From positions 2,294,501 through 2,358,500 of the forward strand of contig NZ_CP071007.1 in assembly GCF_018417635.1 (NCBI RefSeq): a stretch of 64,000 nt of DNA. The letters run 5' to 3'. The notes beneath the pieces are model-generated. The model was not told where the DNA came from. It was given only the letters and a program-made list of their open reading frames with translations, and did no database searches. The position numbers and the translations under genes were made by a program. Shown here piece by piece: positions 28,092-64,000 of this stretch. Every line of letters begins with the position of its first letter. Within the stretch, counting starts at the first letter, position 1. Origin of the DNA: Pseudomonas sp. SORT22 (GTDB lineage: Bacteria > Pseudomonadota > Gammaproteobacteria > Pseudomonadales > Pseudomonadaceae).

Positions 28092-28193
28092 GGCAACTCC
28101 ATTTTTTGTCGTTATGGCACACCCTTTCGAGCCTAAGGCTCGGGTGCGGGCCGCCAACAAGCCGCGGACGACAAAAACCATGCAGGGCGCTGT

Positions 28194-28808: not shown

Positions 28809-28856
28809 GAACAGGCTCCAGCGGTTGGGCGACTGTTCAGAGCATAGTGCCTGGGA

Positions 28857-30218: not shown

Positions 30219-30227
30219 GGTCTGTAC

Positions 30228-47960: not shown

Positions 47961-48853
47961 GCGTGGGTATCCTCTTCGATCTTCTGGTCCTGTTCATCGA
48001 CCTCGTTGGGGCCGACGCCGATGTAATGGAACAGGGTGCCGGCCAGGGTGGCGAAGAACGCCGCCGCGGCCACCGGTTTCATCCAGCCTTTCCAGCCCTG
48101 GATGGCGTTGCTGATGCGCGGGTCGGTGGGCAGCTTGTGGTACAGCTGCGGCTTGTCGGCATGCTGCAGCACGTAGACCACGTGGGTGCCGCCAACGCCT
48201 TGCGGGTCGTAGATGCCGGCCCCGGCAAAGCCGCGGCCCTGCAGCTCGGTGACCCGTTCGCTGGCTTGGTGCAGCATGTCTTGCTTGCTGCCGAAGTTGA
48301 TTGCCCCGGTGGGGCAGGTCTTGACGCAGGCCGGCTCCTGGCCGACCGACACGCGGTCGACGCACAGCGTGCACTTGTAGGCCTTGTTGTCCTTCTTGCT
48401 GATGCGCGGCACATCGAACGGGCAGCCGGCGATGCAGTAGCCGCAACCGATGCAGTGCTCGGACTGGAAGTCGACGATGCCGTTGGCGTACTGGATGATC
48501 GCTCCCGGTTGCGGGCAGGCTTTCAGGCAGCCGGGGTCGGCGCAGTGCATGCAGCCGTCCTTGCGGATCAGCCACTCGAGCTTGCCGCTTTCATCTTCGA
48601 CTTCATCGAAACGCATCAGCGTCCAGGTTTCGGCCGACAGGTCGGCCGGGTTGTCGTACACGCCAACGTTGTGGCCGACCTCGTCACGCAGGTCGTTCCA
48701 CTCGTTGCAGGCCACCTGGCAGGCTTTGCAGCCGATGCAGATGCTCACGTCGATCAGCTTGGCCACTTCGGCCTGGTGATCGCGGGTGTGCGGCGCCGGG
48801 GTCAGCACGTTGGTGGCTGAGCGGCGGACGATGTCTTGGGATTGCATGGACAT
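47957..48853 (-). CDS. fdnH: Formate dehydrogenase beta subunit, four 4Fe-4S clusters
   Basis: A 298-residue electron-transfer subunit. Four clusters are supplied by [46 protein letters not shown] and [23 protein letters not shown]-terminal membrane helix ([17 protein letters not shown]) anchors it. It passes electrons from the Mo/W centre to cytochrome b556. Start ATG 48853 or, two codons later, 48847. It follows fdnG by 11 bases. Confidence 0.92.
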
Positions 48854-48864
48854 GGTATTCGCCC

Positions 48865-51800
48865 TCAGACCTTTTCAATGTTCACGAGAAACGCCTTGTA
48901 CTCCGGCGTGTGGGTGTTCGACTCGCCGATGCCCGGGGTCAGGGTGTTGGCCAGGAAGCCCTTGCGCGTGCTGCCTTCGTAACCCCAGTGGCAAGGAATG
49001 CCGATGGTGTCGACATCCTGGCCATCGACGGCCAGGCGGCGGATGCGCTTGGTCACCACGGCCTTGGCCTTGATGTAGCCACGCTTGGTGCTAACCTTGA
49101 CCAGGTCGCCCTGAACGATGCCCTTGTCGGCGGCGAGCTTCTCGCCGATCTCGATGAACTGCTCGGGCTGGACGATGGCGTTCAACCGCGCGTGCTTGGT
49201 CCAGTGGCGGAACAGCTCGGTGATCGAGTAGGTGGTCGCCACGTAGGGGAACTCTTCGCGCTTGCCCATGCGCTGGCGGTCGCTTTCGTACAGTCGCGCG
49301 GTCGGGCTGTAGGTCACGTTCGGGTGCAGCGGGTTGCTCGCCAGCGGGCTTTCGGTCGGCTCGTAGTGCTCGGGGAACGGCCCGTCGTTCATGGCGCCGA
49401 CCGAGAACAGCCGGCCCAGGCCTTCGGGCAGCATGATGAACGGGTTGACCTTGCCACCGGGGGCGGCGCTGACGGCGAAGTCGGGCACGTCGACGCCGCT
49501 CCAGCGCACACCGTCCCAGCCGATCAGCTTGCGTTTCGGATCCCACGGCTTGCCCTGCGGGTCGGCCGAGGCGCGGTTGTAGAGGATGCGCCGGTTCTGC
49601 GGCCAGGCCCAGGCCCAGCCCGGGGTGCAACCCAGGCCGCTGTCGGCGTTGTCGCGGCGGGCCATCTGGTTGCCCTGTTCGGTCCAGGAGCCGGCGAAGA
49701 TCCAGTTGAAGCACTGGGTCGTGCCGTCGTCACGCAACTGCGAAAAGTCGCTGAGCAACTGGCCCTTGCGCAAAATCAGCTTGCCTTGCTCGTCGTGCAG
49801 GTCGGCCAGGGCGCGGCCGTTGGACTCCTTGGCCACTTCCTCGGGCTTGGGGTCCAGCGGGTCGGCGTAGTCCCAGGCCATGTTGAGGATCGGTGCCGGG
49901 TTGGCGCCGCCTTCCTTTTCGTACAGCTCGCGGATCTTCAGGAACAGGTGGCCGAGGATCTTGCCATCGTGCCAGGCCTCGCCCGGAGGCGCCGCGCCGG
50001 CCCAGTGCCACTGCAGCCAGCGCCCGGAGTTGACGATCGAGCCGTCTTCCTCGGCAAAGCACGAGGAGGGCAGGCGGAACACTTCGGTCTGGATCGCCGC
50101 GGTGTCGACGTCATGCTGCTCGCCGTGGTTCTGCCAGAAGCTCGAGGTCTCGGTGGCCAGCGGGTCGATGATCACCAGGAACTTGAGCTTGGCCAGCGCT
50201 GCCTGGGCCTTGTTCTTGTCGGGGAAGGCCGCCACCGGGTTGAAGCCCTGGGCGATGTAGCCGTTGACCTTGCCTTCGTACATGCGGTTGCTGAAATTGA
50301 GCACGTCGTAGCTGTCGTCCCACTTGGGCAGCCAATCGAAGCCCCAGTCGTTGTCTTTGGTGGCCTTGTCGCCCCAAAGGCTTTTCATCAGGCTGACGAA
50401 GAATTTCGGCGTGTGTTTGTAGTAGTTGACCTGATCCTCCAGCAGCGCCACCGGCGTCACCTGCTTGAGGTAGGTGGCCATGTCGGTCTGCTCGTCGGAC
50501 GGCAGGTTCATGTAGCCAGGCAGGCGCAGCGACAGCAGGCCCAGGTCGGTGTAGCCCTGGATGTTGGAGTGGCCGCGCAGGGCGTTGACGCCACCACCGG
50601 CCATGCCGATGTTGCCCAAAAGCAGCTGGATCATGCCCGAGCCGCGGATCATCTGCGCGCCGTTGGTGTGGTGGGTCCAGCCCAGGGCGTAGAGGAAGGT
50701 CGCGGTCTTGTCCGGGGCGCTGGTTTCGCCAAGGATCGCGCAGATCTTCAGGAAGTCGTCCTTGGGCGTGCCGCAGACGTTGGTGACCATCTGCGGGGTG
50801 TAGCGGCTGACGTGGGCCTTGAGCAGGTTCCACACGCAGCGCGGGTGCTGCAGGGTCAGGTCGCGCTTGGCGTAGCCCTTGCTGTCGAGCTCGTAGGTCC
50901 AGGAGCTGCGGTCGTAGCTGCGCTTGTTGGCGTCGTAGCCGCTGAACAGGCCGTCGTCGAAATGGTAGTCCTCGCGCACGATCAGGCTGGCGTTGGTGTA
51001 GTGGCGTACGTATTCGTGCTGGATCTTGTCGTGGCTGATCAGGTAGTTGACCACGCCCATCAGGAAGGTCACGTCGGAGCCTGCGCGGATCGGCGAGTAG
51101 ATGTCGGCCACCGCGGCGCTGCGGTTGAAGCGCGGGTCGACGACGATGACCTTGGCGCCGTTGCGGATCTTCGCCTCGATCACCCACTTGAAGCCCACCG
51201 GGTGCGCCTCGGCGGGGTTGCCGCCCATGATCAGCACAACGTTGGCGTTCTTGATGTCGACCCAGTTGTTGGTCATGGCGCCACGGCCAAAGGTCGGCGC
51301 CAGGGCCGAAACCGTCGGCGCGTGGCAGACCCGCGCCTGGCTGTCGGTGCCGAGAATGCCCAGGGCACGGGTGAAGCGCTGGTCGAGCGAGCCGGTTTCG
51401 CTGCTGGCCGCCGACGAGCAGAGCATGCCGGTGCTGAGCCAGCGGTTGACCGTGGTGCCCTTGGCGTTCTTCTCGATGAAGTTGGCGTCGCGGTCGTCCT
51501 TCAGCAGCCGGGCGATGCGCTCGATAGCGTGGTCCCAGCTGATGCGTTGCCATTTGTCCGAGCCCGGTGCGCGGTATTCGGGGTAGAGCAGGCGCTGTTC
51601 GCTGTGCACATAGTCGACCAGGCCGGCGCCTTTAGGGCACAGCGAGCCACGGCTGACCGGATGATCAGGGTCGCCTTCGATATGGAAGATCCGCGCCTTG
51701 GCGTTCTTGGCGCCGTCGCCGAGGCTGTACATGAGAATCCCGCAACCGACCGAGCAATAGGTGCAGTTGTTACGGGTTTCCTTGGCGCGCAGCAGCTTGT

Positions 51801-51915
51801 ACTGGCGCGACTGGGTCGCCTGGGCCACGCCCGGGGCAAAGCCCAGGCTTGCACAGGTGGCGGTGGCGACGCCGGCGGTACACAGCTTGAAAAACTGTCG
51901 TCTGCCAAGTCCCAT
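48865..51915 (-). CDS. fdnG: Formate dehydrogenase alpha subunit, Cys-type at the Sec position
   Basis: A 1016-residue molybdopterin enzyme. The Tat signal GRRQFFK leads the chain, [14 protein letters not shown] with a later Cys binds a 4Fe-4S cluster, and the bis-MGD domains fill the rest. At residue 197 (51325-51327), in [20 protein letters not shown], the codon is TGC, where E. coli FdnG has selenocysteine (RVUHGPTV). The frame is uninterrupted by TGA. It oxidises formate to CO2 in the periplasm. TGAGGAGA lies before the start. First gene of fdnGHI-fdhE. Confidence 0.92.
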
Positions 51916-52102: not shown

Positions 52103-52135
52103 CTTGTTGATAGGTCTATCGACAGGATCTATCAA
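52103..52135 (+). promoter_or_regulatory. Putative enhancer site for a sigma-54 activator
   Basis: Three GATAG/CTATC half-sites in 33 bases: cttgttgatag (52103-52113), ctatcgacagg (52116-52126) and ctatcaa (52129-52135). The first and second form an imperfect 11-base-arm dyad with a 2-base centre; the first and third form a perfect TTGATAG/CTATCAA pair. The centre lies about 140 bases before the sigma-54 promoter, the usual distance for NtrC- or SfnR-type activators. Confidence 0.5.
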
Positions 52136-52255
52136 GGCCTGGGCCATGATCAACTGTTCGCCAGGCAACAGCAGTTGGACAGATACCCGCAATTCGAACA
52201 ATTGTTTAAACCGTTGAAACCGCTCAAACCCAAGGATTTCAAGGGATTTTGTGGT

Positions 52256-52271
52256 TGGCACGGACGCTGCA
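52256..52271 (+). promoter_or_regulatory. Sigma-54 promoter of the TonB/ABC/monooxygenase operon
   Basis: TGGCACG-gacg-CTGCA matches the consensus TGGCACG-N4-TTGCA at all but one position, with the required GG-N10-GC spacing. It is about 70 bases before the TTG start of the TonB receptor gene. Confidence 0.7.
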
Positions 52272-52341
52272 ACAGCTCCCTTCGAGATTGACTATACCAA
52301 TAGAAACTCGCCTATTTTTTAATCAGGTGGGGAGCAAGACC

Positions 52342-54501
52342 TTGAATTTCGTGCCTCGGGCAACATCCGTTTTATCCAAATCTTCGACCAAAGTAGTAGG
52401 CAAGGACTGGAAGCTGGCCAGCGTCGGCGCCGCCCTGTTGAGCCTGGCGCCGCTGGCCCAGGCCGAAGACGCCACACAGACTGAAAAACGCCTGGAGACG
52501 GTTACCGTCCAGGCCGCCAAAGCCACCCCGGTAGAAGCGGCGCAGGCGCAACTGGACGAGATCCCCGGCGGTACCGGGCTGGTCCAGCAGGCCGAGGTGG
52601 AGAAGGGCCGCTCAGCCACCCTCGAAGACACCCTGGCCTATCAGCCGGGGGTGTATGCGCAGGCGGCCGGCGGCAACGATGCGATCAAGATTTCCATTCG
52701 CGGCTCGGGCGCCAACACATCGCCTGGCTACTTTCGCGAAGGCACCAAGTTTCTCTTCGACGGCCTGGCCCTGACTGGCGCCGGTGGCACGCCCTACGAG
52801 CTGCTCGACACCCAGGGCCTGAGCTACACCGAGGTACTGCGCGGTGCCAACGCCTTCGAATACGGCGCCTTGTCGCTGGGCGGGGCGATCAACTTCGTTA
52901 CCAACTCCGGCCTCACTGCGCCGGGCAACCGCATCAAGGTCGAAGGCGGCAGTTTCGGCTGGCAGAAGCAGACCCTCAGCACCGGTGGCGTGGCTGGCAA
53001 TGCCGACTACTTCATCAGTGTCGACAACTCCAAGCGCGACGGTTACCAGGACTTCACCTTCACCAAGGCCAAGGGCGTGGTGAGCAACTTCGGCTACCGC
53101 TTCAACCCCAAGCTGGAAACCCGCCTGTACATCCGCTACCGCGAGGAATACCACGAAAACTCCGGGGCCCTGACCCTGGCGCAACTGAAGAAGAACTCCT
53201 CGCAAACCAACCCCAGCACCCGCGCCACCCGCGGCGACTCGACCAAGGAAGGCTCGACCTGGGTCGGCAGCAAGACCACCTACACCTTCGATGACGATTC
53301 GACCCTGGTGGCCGGGCTGGTCTATCACAACTACCCGCAGATCCTCAGCAAGAAGAGCACGGTCAACCCCAACTACTGGGACTGGCGCGACATCAACTAC
53401 TCGCTCAAGTACACCCGCAGCGACCAGCTGTTTGGCCTGCCGAGCACCACCACGGTCGGCTGGAGCAGCACCCAGCACATCCGCTCCGGGGTGCGCACCT
53501 ACAGCGGCGACAAGGACCTGGGCCGGTTGCAGAAGCAGGTCGAGTACGACGGCTCGTTCGACCATGTGTTCTCGCTGGGCAACGACCTCGGCCTGACCGA
53601 CAACCTGTACCTGTCCACGGGCCTCTCGGCCATTGAGGTCAAGCGCAATGTCGATGTCAATTTCAGCGACCGGCCCAACACCAGCGGCATCCCCAGCCAC
53701 TATCGCTATCAGCAATGGAAACTGGCGCCACGGCTCGGCCTGCGTTACTACCTGACCCCGGACGTGCAGGTGTTCGGCAACGTCAGCCGCTCGATCGACC
53801 CGCCCAGCTCCTGGTCCAGTTCCGGCTCGGGGGTGACCACCAACTTCGCCAAGACCCTGGTGCCACAAAGCGCCAACACGGTTGAACTGGGGATTCGCGG
53901 GCGTTCGGAGATTTTCGACGGCAGCCTGACCCTGTACAAATCGTGGATCAAGGACGAGCTGCTCAACGTCGAAATCCTCCCGGCCACCAACACTTCGGCT
54001 GCCGTGGTCTCGACCTCCAACGCCAGCCCGACCATCCACCAGGGCATCGAGGCGGGGCTGACCACCAAGCTCTGGCAACGCGATAACGGCGATGTGCTGA
54101 GCTGGCGCCAGGCCTACACCCTCAACGACTTTCACTACCGCAACGACCCGCTGTTCAGCAAGAACGAGCTGCCGGGCCTGCCCAAGCACATCTACCAGGG
54201 CGAGCTGTTCTACCAGTACGCCAACGGCTTTTACGCCGGGATCAACGTGCGCTCGGCATCGAGCACGGCGGTGGACTACGCCAACAGCTTCTACGCGCCG
54301 TCTTACACCCTGTGGGGCGCACGCTTGGGCTATGACGCGCCGAACAAGACCTGGCAGGTGTACCTGGACCTGAAGAACCTCACCGACAAGGACTACGTCA
54401 CCGCCCTGGTGCCCAGCTACGACGCCAAGGGCCAGGACACCGCCTCGCTGTACCCGGGTGACGGCTTCGGCGCCTACACCGGGATTGCCTACAACTTTTG
54501 A
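52342..54501 (+). CDS. TonB-dependent outer-membrane receptor
   Basis: A 719-residue receptor. I take TTG 52342 as start because GGGGAG lies 7 bases upstream; the frame is open further. A signal peptide ends at LAPLAQAED. The plug domain (LEDTLAYQPGVYAQAAGG, SIRGSGANTSPGYFREGTKF, TEVLRGANAFEYGALSLGGA) is followed by a 22-strand-type barrel ending in Phe (GIAYNF). It imports a scarce ligand through the outer membrane with TonB energy. The next genes are an ABC importer and flavin monooxygenases, so the ligand is probably an organosulfur or organonitrogen compound rather than a siderophore. Inferred. Confidence 0.85.
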   Translation: MNFVPRATSVLSKSSTKVVGKDWKLASVGAALLSLAPLAQAEDATQTEKRLETVTVQAAKATPVEAAQAQLDEIPGGTGLVQQAEVEKGRSATLEDTLAYQPGVYAQAAGGNDAIKISIRGSGANTSPGYFREGTKFLFDGLALTGAGGTPYELLDTQGLSYTEVLRGANAFEYGALSLGGAINFVTNSGLTAPGNRIKVEGGSFGWQKQTLSTGGVAGNADYFISVDNSKRDGYQDFTFTKAKGVVSNFGYRFNPKLETRLYIRYREEYHENSGALTLAQLKKNSSQTNPSTRATRGDSTKEGSTWVGSKTTYTFDDDSTLVAGLVYHNYPQILSKKSTVNPNYWDWRDINYSLKYTRSDQLFGLPSTTTVGWSSTQHIRSGVRTYSGDKDLGRLQKQVEYDGSFDHVFSLGNDLGLTDNLYLSTGLSAIEVKRNVDVNFSDRPNTSGIPSHYRYQQWKLAPRLGLRYYLTPDVQVFGNVSRSIDPPSSWSSSGSGVTTNFAKTLVPQSANTVELGIRGRSEIFDGSLTLYKSWIKDELLNVEILPATNTSAAVVSTSNASPTIHQGIEAGLTTKLWQRDNGDVLSWRQAYTLNDFHYRNDPLFSKNELPGLPKHIYQGELFYQYANGFYAGINVRSASSTAVDYANSFYAPSYTLWGARLGYDAPNKTWQVYLDLKNLTDKDYVTALVPSYDAKGQDTASLYPGDGFGAYTGIAYNF

Positions 54502-54545
54502 GCCAGGGGCGGGTGCCGTTCGCGCGGCACCTGCAGGAGAACCGC

Positions 54546-56261
54546 ATGAGAGTAATCGCAAGGCTGGGCGCGCCCGCCGTGCTTGGCGCGCTGCTGGCCC
54601 TGGGCGCCTGCAAGCCGGTGGAGCAATCGCCGGGGCAGGGCAGCAGTGGCATCGACGGCACGCTGCACAACGGCACCCTCAGCTATGGCGCGCAGGACTA
54701 TTACGAGGCCGCCCCGGGCAAGCCCGGTGGCACCCTGCGGGTGTCGACGGCCTCCGACACCACGACGCTGGACGTGCATTCGATTTCCCACGGCAATGTG
54801 CAGTGGCTGGGGCGCATTCTGTTCGACTGCCTGCTGTACCAGGACGAGCAGGGCAATATCTCGCCGTGGCTGGCCAAGTCCTGGGAGATCTCCGACGACG
54901 GCAAGACCTACACCTTTCACCTGCGCGACGACGTGACCTTCAGCGATGGCGAGAAATTCAACGCCCGTGCCGTGCAGGTCAACCTTGAACACATGCGCGA
55001 CCCGGCGACCAAGTCGCCGCTGGCCGCTGCCTACATCGCCCCATATGTCGACGGGCGCATCGTCGATGAGTACACCTTCGAAGCGCACTTGCGCGAGCCG
55101 TATTCGCCGTTCCTCGATGTGCTGGCGCAGTCGTGGCTGAGCATGATCTCGCCCCGGCAGATCCTCGAAGCGCCGAAGACCATCGCCGAGCACCCGATTG
55201 GCTCCGGGCCCTTCGTGCTGGAAAGCTACACCCGCGACCAGGGCGCCAACTTCGTCAAGCGCAAGGGCTACAACTGGGCGCCCGCAGTCACCCGCCACCA
55301 GGGCGAGGCCTACCTCGATCGCCTGGAGCTGAGCATCGTCCCCGAGCCGATGATCCGCTTCAGTACCCTGGAAGCCGGCCAGTCGGACTTCACCGTCGAC
55401 GCCCCGACCCAGAACGCCCGGGCTATCCGTGACAACCCGGACTTGCAGATGCGCAGCCGCATTCGCAAGGCCAACCCGTTTCGCAGCCTGACCTTCAACG
55501 TCGAGCGCTTTCCCTTCGACGACGTGCAGGTGCGCCGCGCCGTGGCCAAGGCCATCGACCGCGACGGCCTGGCCTGGATCACCGGTTTTGGCGAGTACCT
55601 GGCCAAGGGTGATTTTCTTGCCGCCAACACCCGCTACTACGACCCGGCATTCAAGGATGTACTGGCCTATGACGTCGCCGAGGCCAACCGCATTCTCGAC
55701 CAGGCCGGCTGGAGTGAGCGCGACGCCGAGGGTTACCGGGTCAAGAACGGCCAGCGCCTGGCCGCGCACCTGCTGACCTACGAAACCGCGGCCTACCCGA
55801 GCAGCATCGCCGTGGCCATCCAGGCCGACCTGAAGAAGATCGGCCTCAAGATCGACATCGACCTGCTGCCCCTGGCCCAGGTCACCCAGCGCCGTTACGC
55901 CAGTGATTTCCAGCTGATCGGCGGCGGTTACTGGCACACCAACACCCCCGATGGCCTGTACATCCTCTATCACAGCCAGGCAATCAGCACCGCCAAGCTG
56001 ATCGGCCAAAACGCCGGGCGCTTTCGCGATGCCGAGCTCGACCGGGTGCTCAGCGCAGCGCGGCAGACTACCGACCCGGTGGCGCTGAACGACCTCTACC
56101 GCATTGCCCAGCAGCGCCTGGCGCAGACCATCCCGGCGGTGCCGGTGTTCGAGAGCCATGTGCTGCTGGCCTACCGCAAGCAGGTCAAGGGGCTGATTTT
56201 CGACACTTCGCACAACACCCCGTTTTTCACCAGTGTCTGGCTCGACCCGGAGGGCAAATGA
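54546..56261 (+). CDS. Peptide/nickel-type ABC substrate-binding lipoprotein
   Basis: A 571-residue family-5 binding protein. Start ATG 54546 has AGGAGA upstream; the signal ends in LLALGACKP, a lipobox (LGAC). The mature chain shows GGTLRVSTASDTTTLDVHSI, WLAKSWEISDDGKTYTFHLR, HPIGSGPFVLESYTR and DVQVRRAVAKAIDRDGLAWI. Its stop overlaps the permease start. With 56258-63514 it forms a complete DppABCDF-like importer. The ligand is unknown. Confidence 0.87.
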   Translation: MRVIARLGAPAVLGALLALGACKPVEQSPGQGSSGIDGTLHNGTLSYGAQDYYEAAPGKPGGTLRVSTASDTTTLDVHSISHGNVQWLGRILFDCLLYQDEQGNISPWLAKSWEISDDGKTYTFHLRDDVTFSDGEKFNARAVQVNLEHMRDPATKSPLAAAYIAPYVDGRIVDEYTFEAHLREPYSPFLDVLAQSWLSMISPRQILEAPKTIAEHPIGSGPFVLESYTRDQGANFVKRKGYNWAPAVTRHQGEAYLDRLELSIVPEPMIRFSTLEAGQSDFTVDAPTQNARAIRDNPDLQMRSRIRKANPFRSLTFNVERFPFDDVQVRRAVAKAIDRDGLAWITGFGEYLAKGDFLAANTRYYDPAFKDVLAYDVAEANRILDQAGWSERDAEGYRVKNGQRLAAHLLTYETAAYPSSIAVAIQADLKKIGLKIDIDLLPLAQVTQRRYASDFQLIGGGYWHTNTPDGLYILYHSQAISTAKLIGQNAGRFRDAELDRVLSAARQTTDPVALNDLYRIAQQRLAQTIPAVPVFESHVLLAYRKQVKGLIFDTSHNTPFFTSVWLDPEGK

Positions 56262-57190
56262 CTAGCTTGCAACGATTGGCCTGGCGCCTGCTGGCCGGCA
56301 TCGGCGTGCTTTGGGGCGCGGCGACCCTGACTTTCCTGGCCATCAACCTCAGCGCCGGCGACCCGGCCCTGGCGATTCTCGGCGGCCCCGACGCCATGCC
56401 CAGCGCCGAGCTGATTGCCCAGGTGCGCGCCGAATACGGCCTCGACCAGCCGTTGTGGGTGCAGTACGGGCAGTACCTGGCGCGCCTGGCCCAGGGCGAT
56501 CTGGGCGAGTCGTACCGTTTGCGCATCCCGGTGCTGCAGGTGATCGGCAGCCAGCTGGGCGCCACCGTGCAGCTGTCGCTGGCCGCCGCCTTGCTGTCGA
56601 TTGTGCTGGCGGTGAGCTGCGCGGTGCTCACCGCCAACCGGCCGCGCTGGGTGCGCTCGCTGGTGTCCGGCACTGAACTGGTGCTGTCGTCGGCGCCGTC
56701 GTTCGTGATCGGCATCGTGCTGTTGCTGGTGTTTTCGTTCGGCTGGCACCTGCTGCCGCCATCCGGTTCCAACAGCTGGCAGGCGCTGATTCTGCCGAGC
56801 CTGGCCCTGGCCCTGCCGATTGCCGCGGTGCTGACCCAGGTTCTGCGCCAGGAGCTGGAAGACATCCTCGAACAGCCGTTTATCGCCATGGCCCGCGCCC
56901 GCGGCATGTCCGAGACCGGCGTGCGCCTCAAGCATGCCTTGCGCCATGCCCTGGTGCCGCTGGTGACGTTGTCGGGCTTTGTTTTCGCCAGCTTGCTGGG
57001 CGGTGCGGTGATCATCGAAATGCTCTTCGCCCGCCAGGGCATCGGCCGCTTGATGCTCGACGCCGCAGTCACCAAGGACATGCCCTTGCTGCTGGGCATC
57101 ACCCTGCTGGCGGCGGCGATTTATGTGCTCGTCAACTTTCTCGTCGACCTGATCAACCACTGGGTCGACCCGCGCAGCAAAAGCCTATGA
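56258..57190 (+). CDS. ABC permease, DppB-like
   Basis: A 310-residue inner-membrane permease of the dipeptide/nickel family: six helices, DLGESYRL near residue 80, and the ATPase-docking EAA-like motif in MARARGMSETGVRLKHALRH. GGAVIIEMLFARQGIGRLML closes the family pattern. It begins 4 bases inside the binding-protein gene. Its partner permease lies about 3.8 kb downstream, after three oxidoreductase genes, an unusual separation. Confidence 0.87.
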   Translation: MTSLQRLAWRLLAGIGVLWGAATLTFLAINLSAGDPALAILGGPDAMPSAELIAQVRAEYGLDQPLWVQYGQYLARLAQGDLGESYRLRIPVLQVIGSQLGATVQLSLAAALLSIVLAVSCAVLTANRPRWVRSLVSGTELVLSSAPSFVIGIVLLLVFSFGWHLLPPSGSNSWQALILPSLALALPIAAVLTQVLRQELEDILEQPFIAMARARGMSETGVRLKHALRHALVPLVTLSGFVFASLLGGAVIIEMLFARQGIGRLMLDAAVTKDMPLLLGITLLAAAIYVLVNFLVDLINHWVDPRSKSL

Positions 57191-57212
57191 ACCCGAATTT
57201 CAAGGACCAGCC

Positions 57213-58496
57213 ATGAGTGCCCATGAACTGCCAACAGCCCTGGCTGCGAACTACGCAGGCCAGGACTACGTTAACCTGCAGGCGCGTTTTGCCCCGGTGT
57301 TTGCCCGCATTGCCGAAGGTGCGGTCGAGCGCGAGCAGCAGCGCACCCTGGCCCATGAGCCGGTGGCCTGGCTACGCGAAGCCGGCTTTGGCGCCCTGCG
57401 CGTGCCCCAGGCATTGAACGGCGCCCAGGCCAGCCTGCCGGTGCTGTTTCGCCTGCTGATCGACCTGGCCGAAGCCGACTCCAACCTGCCGCAAATCTTT
57501 CGCGCCCACTTCGGTTTTGTCGAAGGCCGGCTGTCCAGTGGCGATGCCGCTTCGCAACAGCACTGGCTGGCCAAGGTGGCGGCGGGGCAGTTGTGGGGCG
57601 CGGCCATGGCCGAACGCACCGACACCACCGGCAATTCGGTGCGCCTGCGCGCTGCCGACCCGCAGGCGCCCGAGGCCGGCTGGCTGCTGCACGGTGAGAA
57701 GTACTACTGCACTGGCGCCATCTATGCCGACTGGGTGGCGGCGGTGGCCATGCTCGACGAGGATTTTGTCAGCGTGGTGGTGCCGACCACGGCGCCAGGG
57801 GTCAGCCTGGAAGATGACTGGGACGGTTTCGGCCAGCGCCTGAGCGGCAGCGGCACTACCCGTTTTGCCAATGTCGCGGTGCCGCCGCAGCAGGTGCTGC
57901 GGCGCTTCAAGCCCGGCGAGCTGCGCGCCGAATCCTACCTGTCGGCCTTCTACCAGCTGTACCACCTGGCGACCCTGGCCGGTATCGCCCGCGCCGCGCA
58001 GCGCGATGCCGTGGCCTTCGTCCAGGGCCGCACCCGCGCCTTTGGCGTGCCGGGCCAGTCCAGCCCCAAGGACGACCCGCTGGTGCAGCGGGTGATCGGT
58101 CGTCTGTCGAGCCTGGCCTATGCCGCCCAGGCCCTGGTGCTGGATGTCGCCCAGGTGCTGCAGACCGTGCATGAAGCCGAGCTCGACGGTTCGATTGGCG
58201 AGGAGCACTACGTCGAGGCCGACATTCGCACCTACCAGGCCCAGCAGATCGTTCTCGAGCAGGTGCTCGAAGCCACCACCTTGCTGTTTGAAGTCGGCGG
58301 CGCCTCGGCCACCAGCCAGGCCCGGCGCCTCGACCGGCATTGGCGCAATGCCCGCACCCTGGCCTCGCACAACCCGGCGATCTACCGCGAGCGGGCGCTG
58401 GGCAATTACTACCTCAACGGCATCAGCCCTGGTGCCGCCTGGCGCCAGTTGCACGCCCAGGACAACGCCGCCCGCGATGAAGCCAGCGCGGTCTGA
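57213..58496 (+). CDS. Acyl-CoA-dehydrogenase-fold flavin monooxygenase (DszC/SfnB-like)
   Basis: A 427-residue protein of the acyl-CoA dehydrogenase fold. It lacks the usual catalytic Glu loop and instead has the C-terminal HWRNARTLASHNPAIYRERA block typical of DszC-like S-oxygenases and SfnB. Earlier blocks are AEADSNLPQIFRAHFGFVEG, GAAMAERTDTTGNSVRLRA, GEKYYCTGAIYADW and RLSGSGTTRFANVAVP. Such enzymes use FMNH2 and O2 to oxidise a sulfur or nitrogen atom. A second member starts at 63541. Confidence 0.83.
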   Translation: MSAHELPTALAANYAGQDYVNLQARFAPVFARIAEGAVEREQQRTLAHEPVAWLREAGFGALRVPQALNGAQASLPVLFRLLIDLAEADSNLPQIFRAHFGFVEGRLSSGDAASQQHWLAKVAAGQLWGAAMAERTDTTGNSVRLRAADPQAPEAGWLLHGEKYYCTGAIYADWVAAVAMLDEDFVSVVVPTTAPGVSLEDDWDGFGQRLSGSGTTRFANVAVPPQQVLRRFKPGELRAESYLSAFYQLYHLATLAGIARAAQRDAVAFVQGRTRAFGVPGQSSPKDDPLVQRVIGRLSSLAYAAQALVLDVAQVLQTVHEAELDGSIGEEHYVEADIRTYQAQQIVLEQVLEATTLLFEVGGASATSQARRLDRHWRNARTLASHNPAIYRERALGNYYLNGISPGAAWRQLHAQDNAARDEASAV

Positions 58497-58515
58497 CCCC
58501 ACTCAAGGAGTTGCC

Positions 58516-59859
58516 ATGAGCCAGCCTGCAAAACACATGAGCATCGGCATGAACATCCTCGGTTTCGGCGCCCACTCCGGTGCCTGGCGCCAGGCCGAGG
58601 TGCCGGCCAATGCCTATCTCGATCACCAGTACTACAGCAACATCGCGCGCATCGCCGAACGCGGCAAGCTCGATGCGATCTTCCTCGCCGACGGCCCGGC
58701 GCTGATCGGCGATGTTGGCCAGCATCCGGCCGGGCGCCTGGAACCTACCGTGCTGCTCACCGCCGTGGCCCTGGCCACCCGCCATATCGGCGTGATCGCC
58801 ACCGCTTCGAGCAGCTATAACGACCCGTATAACCTGGCCCGGCGCTTCAGTTCGCTGGACCATATCAGCGGCGGCCGCGCGGCCTGGAACGTGGTCACCA
58901 ATGCCGGTGATGCCGCCGCGCAAAACTTCGGCCTGGCCGGTGCGCCGCGGCACGTCGACCGTTATGCCCGGGCCGATGAGTTCATCGATGTCACCCTCAA
59001 ATTGTGGGACAGCTGGGAAGATGACGCGGTGATCGGCGATGCCCGCCGTGGGCGTTTTGCCGACCCGGCCAAGGTGCATGCCATCGACTTTGTCGGCGAG
59101 CACTTCTCGGTCAAGGGCCCGCTCAACCTGCCGCGCTCGCCCCAGGGTCGGCCGGTGCTGGTGCAGGCCGGGTCTTCCGAAGGCGGCAAGGCCCTCGGCT
59201 CGCGCTATGCCGATGCGATCTTCACCACCCAGACCACCCTGGTCGACGGCCAGGCGTTCTATCAGGAAATGAAACAGCGCGCCCGCCAGTGGGGGCGCAA
59301 CCCCGAGCACCTGAAAATCATGCCGGGGCTGTCGACGGTAATCGGCAGCAGCGAGGCCGAGGCCCAGGCGCGTTTCGACGAGCTCAACGCCTGGTACGGC
59401 GAAGAAGGGCTGATCAACCAGGTGGCGGCGCGGGTGGGCCTGGCGGTCAGCGAGCTGCAGCTGGATGCGCCGTTGCCCTGGGAGCGGATTGGCCCGGTGG
59501 CGGATTTCGAGCGCGGCTCCCACGGTTTTCTCGAAGCTCAGTTGAACCTGGCGCGGCGCGAGAACCTGACCATCCGCGAACTGTCGCGGCGCATCCTGGT
59601 CGGCCACCGGCTGATCGTCGGCACCCCGGAACAGGTCGCCGACAGCCTCGAGCACTGGTTCCGTGCCGGCGCTGCCGATGGCTTCAACATCATGCCGGAC
59701 ATGTTCCCCTCCGGCGTCGAGGTGTTCGTCGACCAGGTGGTGCCGCTGCTGCAAAAACGCGGGGTGTTCCGCCATGAGTACCAGGGCAGCACCTTGCGCG
59801 AGCACCTGGGCCTGCCGTACCCGGCCAGCCAGTACCAGCGCGCCGCCGAAGCGGTTTGA
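58516..59859 (+). CDS. FMNH2-dependent monooxygenase, NtaA/DszA family
   Basis: A 447-residue luciferase-like monooxygenase starting at ATG 58516 with AAGGAG upstream. Signs: GKLDAIFLADGPALIGD, ASSSYNDPYNLARRFSSLDH, ISGGRAAWNVVTNAGDAAAQ, VLVQAGSSEGGKALGSRYAD and DGFNIMPDMFPSG. It would cleave a C-S or C-N bond with FMNH2. It follows the DszC-like gene by 19 bases, as dszA and dszC sit together in desulfurisation operons. It is a paralogue of the protein at 28857-30218. No flavin reductase is in view. Confidence 0.85.
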   Translation: MSQPAKHMSIGMNILGFGAHSGAWRQAEVPANAYLDHQYYSNIARIAERGKLDAIFLADGPALIGDVGQHPAGRLEPTVLLTAVALATRHIGVIATASSSYNDPYNLARRFSSLDHISGGRAAWNVVTNAGDAAAQNFGLAGAPRHVDRYARADEFIDVTLKLWDSWEDDAVIGDARRGRFADPAKVHAIDFVGEHFSVKGPLNLPRSPQGRPVLVQAGSSEGGKALGSRYADAIFTTQTTLVDGQAFYQEMKQRARQWGRNPEHLKIMPGLSTVIGSSEAEAQARFDELNAWYGEEGLINQVAARVGLAVSELQLDAPLPWERIGPVADFERGSHGFLEAQLNLARRENLTIRELSRRILVGHRLIVGTPEQVADSLEHWFRAGAADGFNIMPDMFPSGVEVFVDQVVPLLQKRGVFRHEYQGSTLREHLGLPYPASQYQRAAEAV

Positions 59860-59886
59860 GCTTTTTACTTTCGATACGGAGCGAGC

Positions 59887-60942
59887 ATGATCAAACGTAG
59901 ATTGGGCCACAGCGACATTCAGGTCAGCGTGCTGGGGCTGGGCAGCATGACCTGGGGCCACCAGAACAGCGAAAGCGATGCCCACCGCCAGCTCGACGCG
60001 GCGCTGGCCGCTGGTATCAACCTGATCGATACCGCCGAGATGTACCCAACGCCGACCCATGGCGAAACCTGGGGCAGCACCGAGCGCTTCATCGGCAGCT
60101 GGCTGGCGAACAGCGGGCGGCGTTCCGAGGTGGTGCTGGCCAGCAAGATCATCGGCCCGGCACGCCAGCCGGGGGCCGGCGCGCATATCCGTGAGGGGCT
60201 TACACGCCACGACCGGGCCAATATCGTCGCCGCCCTGGACGGCAGCCTCAAGCGCCTGCAAACCGATTACCTGGACCTCTACCAACTGCACTGGCCAGAC
60301 CGCACCACCAATATTTTTGGCCAGCGCGAATACCCCTATGTCGAGGATGACCGCGAAACCGTGAGCATCGCCGAGACCTTGCAGGTGCTGGCCGATCAGG
60401 TCGCCGCCGGCAAGATCCGCCATATCGGCGTGTCCAACGAAACCCCGTGGGGCGTGGCCGAGTTTTTGCGCCAGGCGCGTGAGCAGAACCTGCCGCGCAT
60501 CGTCAGCATCCAGAACCCCTATAGCCTGCTCAACCGCCTGTACGAGGGCGGCCTGTCGGAGTTCAGCCAGCGCGACAACATCGGCTTGCTGGCCTATTCG
60601 CCGCTGGCCTTCGGCGCCCTGACCGGAAAGTACCTCAACGGCGCCTTGCCGCAGGGCTCGCGGCTGTCGTCGGTGTACCGCACCTTCAACCGCTACGACA
60701 GCCCCGGCGCTCATCAGGCCATCGCTGCCTATGTGGCGCTGGCGCAGGAGCTTTCGATCAGCCCGGCGCAACTGGCCCTGGCCTATGTGCTCAACAAGCC
60801 GTTTGTCAGCAGCGCACTGACCGGGCAGACCAGCCTGGCGCAACTGGCCGACAACCTCGGCGCATTGCAGGTGAAGCTGGGTAGCGAAGCCTTGGCGCGC
60901 ATCGAGCAGATCCACCGGCAGATCCCTAACCCGGCTCCCTAA
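59887..60942 (+). CDS. Aldo-keto reductase (Tas/YajO-like)
   Basis: A 351-residue NADPH-dependent reductase. The catalytic tetrad is visible: Asp48 and Tyr53 (LIDTAEMYP), Lys87 (LASKIIG) and His135 (YQLHWPDR). GLGSMTWGHQN at the start and HIGVSNETPWGVAEF are typical of the Tas group. It could reduce an aldehyde or ketone released by the monooxygenases. It lies 27 bases after the NtaA-like gene and 23 before the second permease. Confidence 0.85.
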   Translation: MIKRRLGHSDIQVSVLGLGSMTWGHQNSESDAHRQLDAALAAGINLIDTAEMYPTPTHGETWGSTERFIGSWLANSGRRSEVVLASKIIGPARQPGAGAHIREGLTRHDRANIVAALDGSLKRLQTDYLDLYQLHWPDRTTNIFGQREYPYVEDDRETVSIAETLQVLADQVAAGKIRHIGVSNETPWGVAEFLRQAREQNLPRIVSIQNPYSLLNRLYEGGLSEFSQRDNIGLLAYSPLAFGALTGKYLNGALPQGSRLSSVYRTFNRYDSPGAHQAIAAYVALAQELSISPAQLALAYVLNKPFVSSALTGQTSLAQLADNLGALQVKLGSEALARIEQIHRQIPNPAP

Positions 60943-60965
60943 CGTTCAGTTCATGGAGGTGCCCG

Positions 60966-61856
60966 ATGGCGCCGATCAATTCAACGGCAGCGGTGCTGCC
61001 GGTCAGCGGCCTGATCCCGGCCCCGGCGCGTTTTGCCAGGCGCCGGCCACTGGCGGTACGCCCGGGTCTGGTGCTGGCGGCGCTGTTCGTCGTCTTTTTG
61101 CTGCTGGCAGCGCTGCAGCCAGGCTGGCTGGTGGCCGCCGACCCGCTTGATGCCAACGCCCGCCAGGCGTTCCAGCCACCGGCTAGCCTGCACTGGCTGG
61201 GCACTGACGAGAACGGCCGCGACATCCTCGCGCGGCTGGTCTACGCGGTGCGCCCGTCGCTGGTACTGGGCCTGAGTGCCACGGCGCTGGGATTGCTGCT
61301 GGGCACCGTGCTGGGGCTGCTGGCCGGCCTCGGCCCACGGCTGGTCGACGGCGCGGTGATGCGCCTGGTCGATGTGCTGCTGGCCTTTCCCGACCTGTTG
61401 CTGGCGCTGGTGATCATCACCTTTTTTGGCCAGGGCGCGCTCAACACCATCATCGCCGTGGGCATCGCCAGCGTGCCGCGCTATGCGCGCCTGGTGCGGG
61501 CGCAAACCCTGGTGGTGCGCAATGCCGGCTACGTCGAGGCGGCCACGACCCTGGGCCTGCCACGACGGCAGGTGATCTGGCGGCACGTGCTGCCCAATGC
61601 GATCAAACCGATTTTGATTCTCGCCACCATCGGCATCGGCAGCACCATCGTTGCCGGCGCCGCCCTGAGCTTTCTTGGCTTTGGCGCGCCACCGCCGCAG
61701 CCGGAATGGGGCGGCATGCTCGCCATCGGCCGCAACTACCTGGCCAACGCCTGGTGGCTGGTGGCCTGGCCGGCCCTGGCCATCACCCTCACCGTGGTTT
61801 CGATCACCGCCATCGGCCGCGAACTGCTGCGCCGCAACGAAGGTAAACGCCTATGA
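60966..61856 (+). CDS. ABC permease, DppC-like
   Basis: A 296-residue permease. A long cytoplasmic N-terminus leads to six helices with LGTDENGRDILARLVYAVRP, the DppC signature near residue 78, and the docking motif in VEAATTLGLPRRQVIWRHVL. GAALSFLGFGAPPPQPEWGG is also typical. Its stop overlaps the ATPase start by four bases. It pairs with the DppB-like permease at 56258. Confidence 0.87.
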   Translation: MAPINSTAAVLPVSGLIPAPARFARRRPLAVRPGLVLAALFVVFLLLAALQPGWLVAADPLDANARQAFQPPASLHWLGTDENGRDILARLVYAVRPSLVLGLSATALGLLLGTVLGLLAGLGPRLVDGAVMRLVDVLLAFPDLLLALVIITFFGQGALNTIIAVGIASVPRYARLVRAQTLVVRNAGYVEAATTLGLPRRQVIWRHVLPNAIKPILILATIGIGSTIVAGAALSFLGFGAPPPQPEWGGMLAIGRNYLANAWWLVAWPALAITLTVVSITAIGRELLRRNEGKRL

Positions 61857-63514
61857 ACGCTGTTCTTCAACACCCCGCGCCGCTGGTCGAGGTCAGCGAC
61901 TTGCAGGTGCGCTTCGGCCAGGGCGTGCCGGTGCTCAAGGGCATCAGCTTCACCGTGCAGCAGGGCGAATGCCTGGCGCTGGTGGGCGAGTCGGGCTCGG
62001 GCAAGAGCGTCACTTCGCGCACCCTGGCCGGGCTCACCGGAGCCCATGCGCAGTTGCAGGCCAGCCGCCTGGCCTTTGCCGGGCAGGACCTGCGCCAGTT
62101 CGACGAGCGCGCCTGGCGCCGGGTGCGCGGTGCGCAAATCGGCTTTGTCATGCAAGACGCCCTGGGCTCGCTCGACCCCCTGCGCCCGGTCGGCAAGGAG
62201 ATTGCCGAGCCGCTGCAACTGCACAGCGCGCTGAACCGCGAGCAGCGTCAGGCGCGGGTGCTGGAACTGCTGCGCGCGGTCGGCGTGCCGGAACCTGAGC
62301 TGCGCGCCCGCCAGTACCCCTGGCAGCTCTCCGGCGGCTTGCGCCAACGGGCGCTGATCGCCTCGGCGATTGCCTGCAACCCGCGCCTGCTGATTGCCGA
62401 CGAGCCGACCACGGCGCTGGATGCCACGGTGCAGGCCCAGGTCTTGAGCCTGCTCGAATCCCTGCGCGGCGACAGCACGGCGATGCTGATTGTCAGCCAC
62501 GACCTGGCGGTGGTCTCGCGCCTGGCCAACCGCGTGGCAGTGATGCACAACGGCGTGATCGTCGAGCAGGGTAGTGTCGAGGCGGTGCTGCAAGACCCGC
62601 AGCACCCCTACACCCAGTACCTGCTCAAGGCCGGTGCCGCCGTGCATTTTCGCCGGCCGCAGGCAGCAAAACTTGCGGCCGTGGCGCCGCCGGTGGTGGA
62701 AACCAGCGCGCCGCTGTTGCAGGTGCAGCAACTGAGCAAGGCCTTCAAGGGCCCGGACGGCGCCTTGCGCACCGTGGTCGACAAGGTTTCGCTGCAGCTG
62801 CACAAGGGCCGCACCTTAGGCATTGTCGGCGAGTCGGGCTCGGGCAAGACCACCCTGACCCGGATGATCCTCGGCCTGGAAACCCCCGACAGCGGCGCGA
62901 TCCAGATCAAGGGCCGGCCCTGGCTGCAACTCGATGACCAGGAGAAACGCGCGCTTCGCCGCAGCATCCAGGTGGTGTTCCAGGACCCGCTGAGCTCCTT
63001 CGACCCGCGCTACACCGTGCAGCGGGTGTTGTACGAGGCGCTGCAAGTAGCCGGGCACCTGCGCGCGCAGTGGCGCCCGCAGGCCGTCGAGTTGCTCACC
63101 CTGGTGCGCCTTGACGAAAGCCTGCTGGAGCGGCGCCCGATCGAGCTGTCGGGCGGCCAGCGGCAACGCATCGCCATTGCCCGCGCCCTGGCCGCGCAGC
63201 CGCAGATCCTGGTGTGCGACGAGCCGGTGTCGGCGCTGGATGTGTCGGTGCAGGCGCAGATCCTCGAACTGCTCGACGACCTAAAACAGCGCCTGGGCCT
63301 GGCCTGCCTGTTCATCTCCCACGACCTGGGGGTGATCAACCACGTCAGCGACCAGGTGCTGGTGATGAAAGACGGCGTGGCGGTGGAAAGCGGCGCCGTG
63401 CGCGATGTTTTCGACCGTCCGCAACACCCCTATACCCGTGCCTTGCTTGACGCCATTCCACACCTGGAAAGCGGTCGCAAGGTCAGTTTCGAATTTCTCC
63501 GCCTGGCGATCTGA
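61853..63514 (+). CDS. ABC ATPase, fused DppD-DppF-like
   Basis: A 553-residue protein with two complete ATPase modules. Module 1 has Walker A GESGSGKS (45-52), signature LSGGLRQR near 159 and Walker B LLIADEPTTALDA. Module 2 has Walker A GESGSGKTTLTR near 326, signature LSGGQRQRIAIARAL near 432 and ILVCDEPVSALDV. HPYTQYLLKA and HPYTRALLDAIP mark the oligopeptide-transport C-terminal tails. It powers the importer of this operon. Confidence 0.88.
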   Translation: MNAVLQHPAPLVEVSDLQVRFGQGVPVLKGISFTVQQGECLALVGESGSGKSVTSRTLAGLTGAHAQLQASRLAFAGQDLRQFDERAWRRVRGAQIGFVMQDALGSLDPLRPVGKEIAEPLQLHSALNREQRQARVLELLRAVGVPEPELRARQYPWQLSGGLRQRALIASAIACNPRLLIADEPTTALDATVQAQVLSLLESLRGDSTAMLIVSHDLAVVSRLANRVAVMHNGVIVEQGSVEAVLQDPQHPYTQYLLKAGAAVHFRRPQAAKLAAVAPPVVETSAPLLQVQQLSKAFKGPDGALRTVVDKVSLQLHKGRTLGIVGESGSGKTTLTRMILGLETPDSGAIQIKGRPWLQLDDQEKRALRRSIQVVFQDPLSSFDPRYTVQRVLYEALQVAGHLRAQWRPQAVELLTLVRLDESLLERRPIELSGGQRQRIAIARALAAQPQILVCDEPVSALDVSVQAQILELLDDLKQRLGLACLFISHDLGVINHVSDQVLVMKDGVAVESGAVRDVFDRPQHPYTRALLDAIPHLESGRKVSFEFLRLAI

Positions 63515-63540
63515 TCGCCTGATTTGCACAAGGAAAGTCC

Positions 63541-64000
63541 ATGCCTGGTTTATCCGCAGTCCCCCCGATTGAGCGTCGCAACCTCGACGATCTCAAAGGC
63601 AATACCGAAAACCTGCTGGCGCTGATTGCCGCCGGCGCCGCGCAACGTGAGCGCGAACGCCAGCTGCCCTATGAAGCGGTGCGCCAGATTGCCCAGGCCG
63701 GGCTCTACACCTGTCGCATCCCCGAGCAGTATGGCGGCCCGGGTGGCAGTGTCAGCGATGTGATCGGCCTGCTGCTGCGCATCGCCTCGGTGGACTCCAA
63801 CGTCGCCCAGGCGCTGCGCCCGGGCTTTGGTTTTATCGAAGGCTTGTTGTCGTCAACCGCCGACGGCGCCGAGGCCGAGCGCCAGCGCTGGTTCGCCCGT
63901 TACCTGCAAGGCGCGGTGCTGGGCAATGCCGGTTGGGAAGTGGGCGGCGCCAATGGCGCGATCAGTGCGCGCATCGTGCGTGACGGCGAGCATTACCGCG
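63541..64000 (+). CDS. SfnB/DszC-like flavoenzyme (3' truncated by window)
   Basis: The frame begins at ATG 63541 with AAGGAAA upstream and runs off the right edge after 153 codons. The visible part matches the N-terminus of acyl-CoA-dehydrogenase-fold monooxygenases: AAQRERERQLPYEAVRQIAQ, GLYTCRIPEQYGGPGGS, DVIGLLLRIASVDSNVAQAL and GNAGWEVGGANGAISARI. It resembles SfnB, linked to sulfur assimilation in P. putida, and is a distant paralogue of 57213-58496. The catalytic C-terminus is outside the window. Confidence 0.8.
   Translation, partial: MPGLSAVPPIERRNLDDLKGNTENLLALIAAGAAQRERERQLPYEAVRQIAQAGLYTCRIPEQYGGPGGSVSDVIGLLLRIASVDSNVAQALRPGFGFIEGLLSSTADGAEAERQRWFARYLQGAVLGNAGWEVGGANGAISARIVRDGEHYR

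What the first reader, a model, noticed from the sequence alone, without database searches (positions are those of the whole stretch)
52103..64000. Sigma-54-driven uptake and oxidation operon with unknown substrate
Nine collinear genes follow one good sigma-54 promoter: TonB receptor, binding lipoprotein, two permeases, fused ATPase, two DszC/SfnB-like flavoenzymes, a DszA/NtaA-like monooxygenase and an aldo-keto reductase. The set can carry a compound from outside the cell to oxidative C-S or C-N cleavage. Sulfur scavenging by SfnR is sigma-54-dependent in P. putida, which favours an organosulfur ligand. A TonB receptor coupled to a peptide-type importer and desulfurisation-type enzymes is not a pathway I know as described.
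Basis: partly seen in the sequence, partly recalled or inferred. Interest (0 to 1): 0.75.

Follow-up and report, generated by a model that had tools for sequence, protein, structure and literature searches.

The report
SfnR-type sulfur-scavenging uptake and oxidation operon
A soil-type Pseudomonas carries a ten-gene operon that appears to pull an unknown sulfur-containing compound through both cell membranes and cut the sulfur out of it, and its control DNA matches that of known sulfur-starvation genes, so the operon probably works when sulfate is scarce.

Summary
Nine collinear genes follow one strong sigma-54 site; the ninth runs past the window end and a tenth (MFS exporter) follows. The sulfur interpretation is now well supported, by computation only. 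The promoter carries an enhancer palindrome, ACTGTTCGCCAGGCAACAGC (motif ACTGTT-N8-AACAGT), 103 bp upstream of the -24 element. Defined by eye on relatives of this operon, the motif was then found at 24 of 27 scored promoters of sfnG, a known SfnR target. The strict enhancer+promoter pattern occurs 53 times in 59 Pseudomonas genomes (control 0), once in this genome: here. Of 32 sites whose downstream gene I looked at, 28 precede sulfur-type genes or receptors of this kind. The pattern tracks SfnR (30 of 39 genomes with SfnR-like protein, 2 of 20 without). A convergent msuC-sfnR-like pair lies just past the window. Importer, receptor and SfnB1 are conserved in nearly all of 43 long loci; LLM enzyme, AKR, SfnB2 and MFS vary. 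Best reading: SfnR-controlled, TonB-dependent import of an unknown organosulfur compound, S-oxidation, C-S cleavage. Ligand and reaction are inferred; nothing is shown at the bench. The sftP/ats sulfate-ester precedent makes it a new variant, not a new kind.

The parts
52153..52172 (+). enhancer palindrome (predicted SfnR-type UAS), ACTGTTCGCCAGGCAACAGC, 103 bp upstream of the -24 element
   Evidence: 11 of 12 half-site letters; 1 of 5000 dinucleotide shuffles reaches 11; same motif at sfnG promoters
52256..52271 (+). sigma-54 promoter (-24/-12), TGGCACGGACGCTGCA
   Evidence: one mismatch to the consensus; best site of the window and conserved in relatives
52342..54501 (+). TonB-dependent outer-membrane receptor, TTG start; TonB-box-like ETVTVQA (by eye)
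   Evidence: PF00593, PF07715; best NCBIfam hit PqqU 96.7 bits, cut-off 1200
54546..56261 (+). periplasmic binding lipoprotein, SBP_bac_5
   Evidence: PF00496 272 bits; lipobox LGAC by eye
56258..57190 (+). inner-membrane permease 1 (OppB/NikB-like)
   Evidence: PF00528
57213..58496 (+). SfnB1, acyl-CoA-dehydrogenase-fold (group D) flavin monooxygenase
   Evidence: TIGR04022 271.6 bits, below cut-off 430.9; motif RHWRNAR invariant in 47 aligned rows
58516..59859 (+). NtaA/DmoA-family FMNH2-dependent monooxygenase (LLM)
   Evidence: TIGR03860 526.4 bits, cut-off 279.7; best solved relatives 3sdo, YtnJ/MoxC, DszA
59887..60942 (+). aldo-keto reductase
   Evidence: PRK10625 442 bits, cut-off 415
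60966..61856 (+). inner-membrane permease 2 (OppC/NikC-like)
   Evidence: PF00528
61853..63514 (+). fused double ATPase of the importer
   Evidence: two ABC_tran stretches plus oligo_HPY
63541..64000 (+). SfnB2, second group D-like flavoenzyme, continues past the window (402 aa in all); MFS exporter, then convergent sfnR-like and msuC-like genes follow outside the window
   Evidence: TIGR04022 332.9 bits for the full protein; downstream genes

Best explanation
This is a sulfur-scavenging operon of the SfnR/sigma-54 regulon. Proposed sequence of events: when sulfate is scarce an SfnR-type enhancer-binding protein binds the palindrome and fires the sigma-54 promoter. The TonB receptor takes a dilute or bulky organosulfur compound across the outer membrane, the lipoprotein hands it to the peptide-type ABC importer, SfnB1 (and SfnB2) oxidises its sulfur with reduced flavin, and the NtaA/DmoA-family enzyme cuts the C-S bond. 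Cleavage would give a sulfur product for cysteine synthesis and an aldehyde or ketone that the aldo-keto reductase reduces; the MFS pump would remove leftovers. Shown here by sequence: gene order, families, promoter, enhancer motif, motif shared with sfnG/msuE/ssuA-type genes, neighbouring msuC-sfnR-like pair, conservation. Inferred: SfnR binding, direction of transport, substrate class, reaction order, roles of AKR and MFS. The ligand is unknown; a thioether or sulfoxide is my first guess.
For: (1) In 40 of 40 Pseudomonas loci with upstream DNA at least one receptor gene has a sigma-54 site scoring >=21.5; in 39 it is the cassette's own receptor, in L048 another one. (2) The palindrome, defined by eye on this operon's relatives, reaches >=10/12 at 24 of 27 scored sfnG promoters (28 loci; one gave no site), against 31 of 5400 dinucleotide shuffles. 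(3) Strict composite element: 53 sites in 32 of 59 genomes, 0 for the reversed pattern; one site in this genome, this promoter. In the 30 loci returned there are 32 sites: 11 sfnG, 7 receptors of this kind (this operon's own among them), 7 SsuA-family proteins, 2 SfnB-like, 1 msuE, 4 other or unclear. (4) Element present in 30 of 39 genomes with an SfnR-like protein, 2 of 20 without, Fisher 9.4e-7. (5) Next downstream pair: an MsuC-like enzyme (688.6 bits to 6u76) and a 366-aa activator without receiver domain. Cassettes also sit near sfnR-like genes in G003, G018 and G043. (6) Family precedents: group D enzymes oxidise DMS and DMSO in vitro (PMC13352529, section 22); CmoJ, a YxeK/DszA homologue, cleaves a sulfoxide C-S bond to aldehyde plus sulfenic acid (PMC10863075, part 1 of 3).
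Against: No expression or binding data. The LLM is missing in 8 of 43 and the AKR in 19 of 43 long non-actinobacterial loci, so neither is essential to whatever the core does. 14 of 47 scored receptor promoters have a palindrome below 10/12 and 4 below 9; of 9 scored promoters before the binding-protein gene only 3 reach 10. Of 9 such loci outside Pseudomonas, 8 have no sigma-54 site >=21.5 and the ninth, L054, only one 363 bp before another receptor. 9 of 39 genomes with an SfnR-like protein lack the strict element. Type I binding protein with SfnR-like protein is 7 of 7 but not significant (p=0.083; types I+II 10 of 10, p=0.012; relatedness not corrected), and in only 2 of those 7 (G000, G043) were the two seen close together. 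No flavin reductase in the operon. Several LLM relatives are named for C-N substrates (nitrilotriacetate, EDTA).
Confidence: 0.75

Rival explanations
1. Metallophore or chelate uptake: the receptor and NikA/CntA-like binding protein import a metal chelate or aminopolycarboxylate, and the monooxygenases cleave C-N bonds to release the metal or nitrogen.
For: TonB receptors usually carry chelates (general knowledge). The best NCBIfam score of the binding protein is NikA (217.5 bits) and CntA scores 158.9; LLM relatives include EDTA monooxygenase and an entry called nitrilotriacetate monooxygenase. An EDTA precedent with a peptide-type importer is recalled, not read.
Against: The enhancer and promoter are those of sulfur genes and the neighbours are msuC-sfnR-like. 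NikA score is far below its cut-off 393. The segment aligned to the PRPxxF stretch of NikA/CntA (whose Arg binds the chelate, recalled) reads QSWLSM in the window protein, with Q211 1.00, S212 0.98 and W213 0.91 conserved in 55 rows.
Confidence: 0.12
2. Sulfonate or sulfate-ester importer: a variant of the ssu or sft/ats systems in which the ligand is an aliphatic or aryl sulfonate or sulfate ester and SfnB-like enzymes are accessory.
For: Same element as ssuA-family genes; sftP shows a TonB receptor with sulfate-ester genes.
Against: The importer is SBP_bac_5/peptide type, not SsuA type; no sulfatase, SsuD or TauD model among the best hits of the ten genes; the LLM is NtaA/DmoA family (526 bits) with SsuD models at 43-45 bits, below their cut-offs.
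Confidence: 0.1
3. Cysteine-derivative salvage: a CmoOJ-like route for S-alkylcysteine or S-alkylated small peptides such as glutathione conjugates, with peptide-type import.
For: The LLM's best solved relatives include YtnJ/MoxC (341 bits), which I recall as CmoJ; the glutathione-binding GsiB model scores 155.2 bits on the binding protein; a GNAT acetyltransferase cluster has a member in 8 loci (Pfam-checked in L031), as an N-acetylation step would need.
Against: No GNAT or deacetylase in this operon; small amino acids would not be expected to need a TonB receptor; 3sdo (342 bits) and DszA (316 bits) score as high or nearly so; GsiB cut-off 594 is not met.
Confidence: 0.25
4. Chance assembly of unrelated genes: the enzymes merely lie behind an iron receptor operon.
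For: AKR, SfnB2 and MFS come and go between lineages.
Against: In 43 non-actinobacterial loci of >=19 kb: PermB and SfnB1 in 43, receptor in 41 at >=40% (the other two 39-40%), PermC and ATPase in 42, across gamma-, beta- and alphaproteobacteria.
Confidence: 0.02

Closest known systems
sftP-ats sulfate-ester system (atsACBR-sftR-atsK-sftP, Pseudomonas)
   Same: TonB-dependent receptor, ABC importer and an alkylsulfatase (AtsK, an oxygenase by recall) in one sulfur cluster (PMC3596284 passage).
   Different: Sulfonate-type importer, sulfatases instead of flavin monooxygenases, LysR regulator SftR instead of sigma-54.
DMS/DMSO2/methanesulfonate route (Dms, SfnG, MsuCDE, SfnR)
   Same: Group D oxidase plus LLM enzyme; sigma-54 and, on the motif evidence, the same enhancer.
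   Different: Here there is a receptor and a peptide-type importer, and the LLM is NtaA/DmoA family; no SfnG over cut-off in this genome (best 159 bits, cut-off 382.95).
CmoO/CmoJ S-alkylcysteine salvage (B. subtilis)
   Same: Sulfoxidation, then C-S cleavage by a DszA/YxeK homologue that yields an aldehyde (PMC10863075, part 1 of 3).
   Different: No receptor or importer in what I read; the acetylation and deacetylation steps have no counterpart in this operon.
DszC-DszA of the 4S pathway
   Same: An acyl-CoA-dehydrogenase-fold S-oxidase paired with an NtaA/DmoA-family C-S monooxygenase (pairing recalled).
   Different: SfnB1 scores 135.6 bits on the DszC model (cut-off 850); no DszB-type protein among the ten genes.
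TIGR04028 (SBP_KPN_01854) binding-protein family
   Same: Second-best NCBIfam hit of the binding protein, 211.7 bits.
   Different: Below its cut-off of 468.5; the model's entry gives no function.

Membership tests
SfnR/sigma-54 sulfur regulon | sigma-54 -24/-12 site at the operon | tested here: met
SfnR/sigma-54 sulfur regulon | same enhancer motif as the known target sfnG | tested here: met
   24 of 27 scored sfnG promoters and this one carry it
SfnR/sigma-54 sulfur regulon | SfnR-like activator present in the genome | tested here: met
   366-aa protein near the cassette and a 62% identical second one; called SfnR-like by size, domains and msuC neighbour, not by a curated model
SfnR/sigma-54 sulfur regulon | SfnR binds and induction on sulfate limitation | not testable with these tools
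   needs bench work
NtaA/DmoA family FMN monooxygenase (TIGR03860) | score above curated cut-off | tested here: met
   526.4 against 279.7
SfnB equivalog (TIGR04022) | score above curated cut-off | tested here: not met
   271.6 and 332.9 against 430.9; separate clades from this genome's canonical SfnB pair
DszC (NF043015) | score above curated cut-off | tested here: not met
   135.6 against 850
NikA nickel-binding protein (TIGR02294) | score above curated cut-off | tested here: not met
   217.5 against 393
NikA/CntA metallophore-binding protein | chelate-binding Arg in the PRPxxF stretch (recalled) | tested here: inconclusive
   QSWLSM in that stretch, but what the Arg does is from recall
PqqU receptor (NF041535) | score above curated cut-off | tested here: not met
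   96.7 against 1200
CmoJ | N-acetyl-S-alkylcysteine sulfoxide cleavage | not testable with these tools
   similarity to YtnJ/MoxC only
sftP/ats system | sulfatase or alkylsulfatase plus LysR regulator in the cluster | tested here: not met
   none among the ten genes

The most novel reading that the evidence does not exclude
A sulfur-piracy system: a TonB receptor captures a large or very dilute sulfur-bearing natural product made by plants or other microbes (for example a thioether or thiazoline metabolite), the cell cuts out only the sulfur by flavin-dependent S-oxidation and C-S cleavage, and the carbon skeleton is reduced and pumped out again. If so, outer-membrane active transport of organosulfur extends beyond sulfate esters.
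Probability: 0.3. Interest if true: 0.78.

Novelty: new variant of a known kind. Interest (0 to 1): 0.58.

Why it matters
It gives a receptor-importer-oxidase cassette, for which I found no description in the papers I could search, a likely regulator, a condition and a testable DNA element. The enhancer+promoter pattern had 53 matches and no control matches in 59 Pseudomonas genomes, so it can be used to look for further sulfur-scavenging genes. Finding the ligand would show which organosulfur compounds are worth TonB-dependent transport.

Tried and rejected
Considered and set aside: a metal-chelate importer, a sulfonate/sulfate-ester importer, chance gene neighbours (see rivals).

The exact CTGTT-N8-AACAG palindrome has 9 places in this genome; only the one at this promoter had a sigma-54 site of >=21 within 250 bp. 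The one at 33652, beside an acyl-CoA-dehydrogenase-like gene, first looked like a second target; it lies inside a predicted gene without such a site, so I dropped it. The canonical SfnB pair locus (L014) shows no sigma-54 site of 21 or more and is not evidence for the motif. L015 has divergent sigma-54 sites and two degenerate copies of the palindrome, seen by eye; not counted.

My automatic gene picker mis-started the activator gene (433 aa); the sequence gives 366 aa. It also missed genes in several loci, so presence counts use tblastn.

A structure prediction of the binding protein had not finished after 14 collecting calls; no structural result is used. P. donghuensis P482 RNA-seq: sfnR goes down with ssu, tau and cys genes under plant exudates, but the passages I saw do not name the cassette, and supplements could not be looked up (PMC10256816). 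Passages of PMC8557817, PMC7661421, PMC12892942, PMC12892962 and PMC8274868 were also seen; the passages shown do not describe this cassette.

On checking the draft I mended: the claim that no locus outside Pseudomonas has the sigma-54 site (L054 has one before another receptor), the L048 case, and the wording on closeness to sfnR.
Full report
What is there. The nine genes are as described, tightly packed and on one strand. The window is G000:C1:2294501-2358500 of a 5.8 Mb one-contig genome; its closest named relatives by binding protein are P. donghuensis and P. wadenswilerensis, 97%. Past the window end come the rest of SfnB2 (402 aa), a DHA2-type MFS transporter 1 nt later, and then, convergent, a sigma-54 activator and an MsuC-like enzyme.

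Conservation. A scan of one genome per species with the binding protein gave 60 loci: 9 actinobacterial and 51 others, proteobacterial by record title except L061, a MAG titled only 'bacterium'. In the 43 of these 51 that are at least 19 kb long: permease B and SfnB1 43, receptor 41 (the other two 39-40%), permease C and ATPase 42, LLM 35, AKR 24, SfnB2 17, MFS 12 (identity thresholds as set in the script; the binding protein was the bait). Seven of the 9 actinobacterial loci have LLM, SfnB2-like and AKR relatives at 31-52% identity, and none a receptor, as expected without an outer membrane. So the importer-oxidase unit is perhaps older than the receptor link, an inference. In a sample of 59 genomes of the genus a binding protein at >=68% is in 7; I saw the whole cassette in G000, G007 and G043 of these.

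Promoter and enhancer. At least one receptor gene in each of 40 Pseudomonas loci with upstream DNA has a sigma-54 site scoring >=21.5 of 24.5 (L045 lacks the region; in L048 it is not the cassette's own receptor). Outside Pseudomonas 8 of 9 loci have none and L054 has one before another receptor. In ten loci with a divergent receptor (L031-L038, L047, L050) both sides have such sites, though those before the binding-protein gene lie within 30 nt of the aligned start. Upstream regions share a palindrome, ACTGTT-N8-AACAGT, mostly 90-104 bp before the -24 element. Because I defined it by eye there, the cassette counts (33 of 47 scored receptor promoters >=10/12; 3 of 9 before the binding-protein gene) are circular. 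The independent test was sfnG: of 28 loci, 27 had a scorable promoter, 24 of these reach >=10/12 and 26 >=9/12; dinucleotide shuffles reach 10 in 31 of 5400 and 9 in 275. That SfnR activates sfnFG is the title of Endoh et al. 2005, seen only in reference lists.

Genus-wide. The strict composite pattern gives 53 sites in 32 of 59 genomes and none for the reversed control (53 is my sum of its rows). The 30 loci returned hold 32 sites: 11 sfnG, 7 receptors 47-100% like this one (this operon and a 97% relative among them), 7 SsuA family (all above cut-off), 2 SfnB-like, 1 msuE (above cut-off), 4 other or unclear: L164 weakly like sugar-binding proteins, L174 no family, L181 and L183 not identified. 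The other 21 sites were not classified. SfnR-like proteins (E<=1e-100) occur in 39 of 59 genomes; the element is in 30 of these and 2 of the other 20. Kinship between genomes is not corrected for.

Nearness to sfnR. In G000 and G043 the type I cassette and an sfnR-like gene lie within about 20 kb. In G007, G048 and G054 they are on different contigs (in G007 both at contig ends), in G032 and G052 far apart.

Type II cassettes. G003 and G018 have nearly the same SfnB1 (71-72%), a receptor (51-57%) and an AKR or second LLM, but a binding protein only 37-38% alike, near msuC-sfnR-like genes and behind the same element. G051 was counted as type II on its binding protein alone (39%). In the tree the type II SfnB1 rows fall inside the Pseudomonas type I clade (100/99), though their exact place is weakly supported (37 rows). 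The importer seems to have been exchanged while the oxidase stayed, so SfnB1 may be the heart of the pathway.

Enzymes. SfnB1 and SfnB2 carry the motif RHWRNAR (invariant in 47 SfnB1 rows, seen once in SfnB2). Acinetobacter baylyi group D enzymes Dms1-3 oxidise DMS and DMSO in vitro (PMC13352529: abstract, section 22 and passages read); that group D means this fold is recalled. The LLM's best solved relatives are 3sdo, YtnJ/MoxC and DszA. CmoJ, a homologue of YxeK and DszA, turns an alkylcysteine sulfoxide into an aldehyde and a sulfenic acid (PMC10863075, part 1 of 3 read); that YtnJ is CmoJ I recall. An aldehyde product would explain the AKR. In Gordonia an acyl-CoA dehydrogenase and an NtaA/DmoA-family enzyme with adjacent accession numbers (QGP87979.1, QGP87980.1) rise on dibenzothiophene (PMC11852219, passages). 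In P. aeruginosa sulfur starvation raises SfnG over 2,800-fold and also SfnR1/MsuCDE (PMC12581299, passage).

What is not settled. The ligand, the reaction, whether the nearby SfnR-like protein or its 62% paralogue acts here, and what the MFS does. The operon has no flavin reductase; an FMN_red protein lies at about 430.6 kb of G000.

In print. I found no paper on this cassette in searches of one open-access library; of most hits I saw only the listing, and subscription papers are mostly not in it, so this is weak evidence of absence.

Noticed in passing
window 26118-31208, minus strand: Another sulfur-type cluster in the same window: an SsuA-family binding protein (179 bits, cut-off 163.5), an NtaA/DmoA-family monooxygenase (555 bits) and a protein (661 aa tested) with weak metallo-beta-lactamase-fold matches.
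   Followed up: partly
L015 (G000:C1:3402000-3420000): A further locus with an SBP_bac_5-type protein, SsuD-like monooxygenase and SfnB-like enzyme around divergent sigma-54 sites, with two degenerate copies of the palindrome seen by eye.
   Followed up: partly
L031, L034, L036, L037, L041, L043, L044, L050: A GNAT acetyltransferase cluster with a member in each of these loci; Pfam-confirmed for L031 only, where it directly follows the second LLM gene.
   Followed up: partly
L019, L040, L041, L073 against the MFS-bearing loci: An ABC exporter-type protein (607 aa in L040, Pfam-checked) follows the importer ATPase where others have the MFS pump, as if the two replaced each other; L057 and L062 have relatives elsewhere in the locus.
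   Followed up: no
window 47957-51915, minus strand: Divergent genes for a 1016-aa and a 298-aa iron-sulfur-type protein that look like formate dehydrogenase (by eye); the cluster was seen upstream of the cassette in L016, L017, L018, L029, L030 and G007.
   Followed up: no
window 52112-52129: A further imperfect palindrome, GTTGATAGGTCTATCGAC, seen by eye only in the closest relatives; its role is unknown.
   Followed up: no
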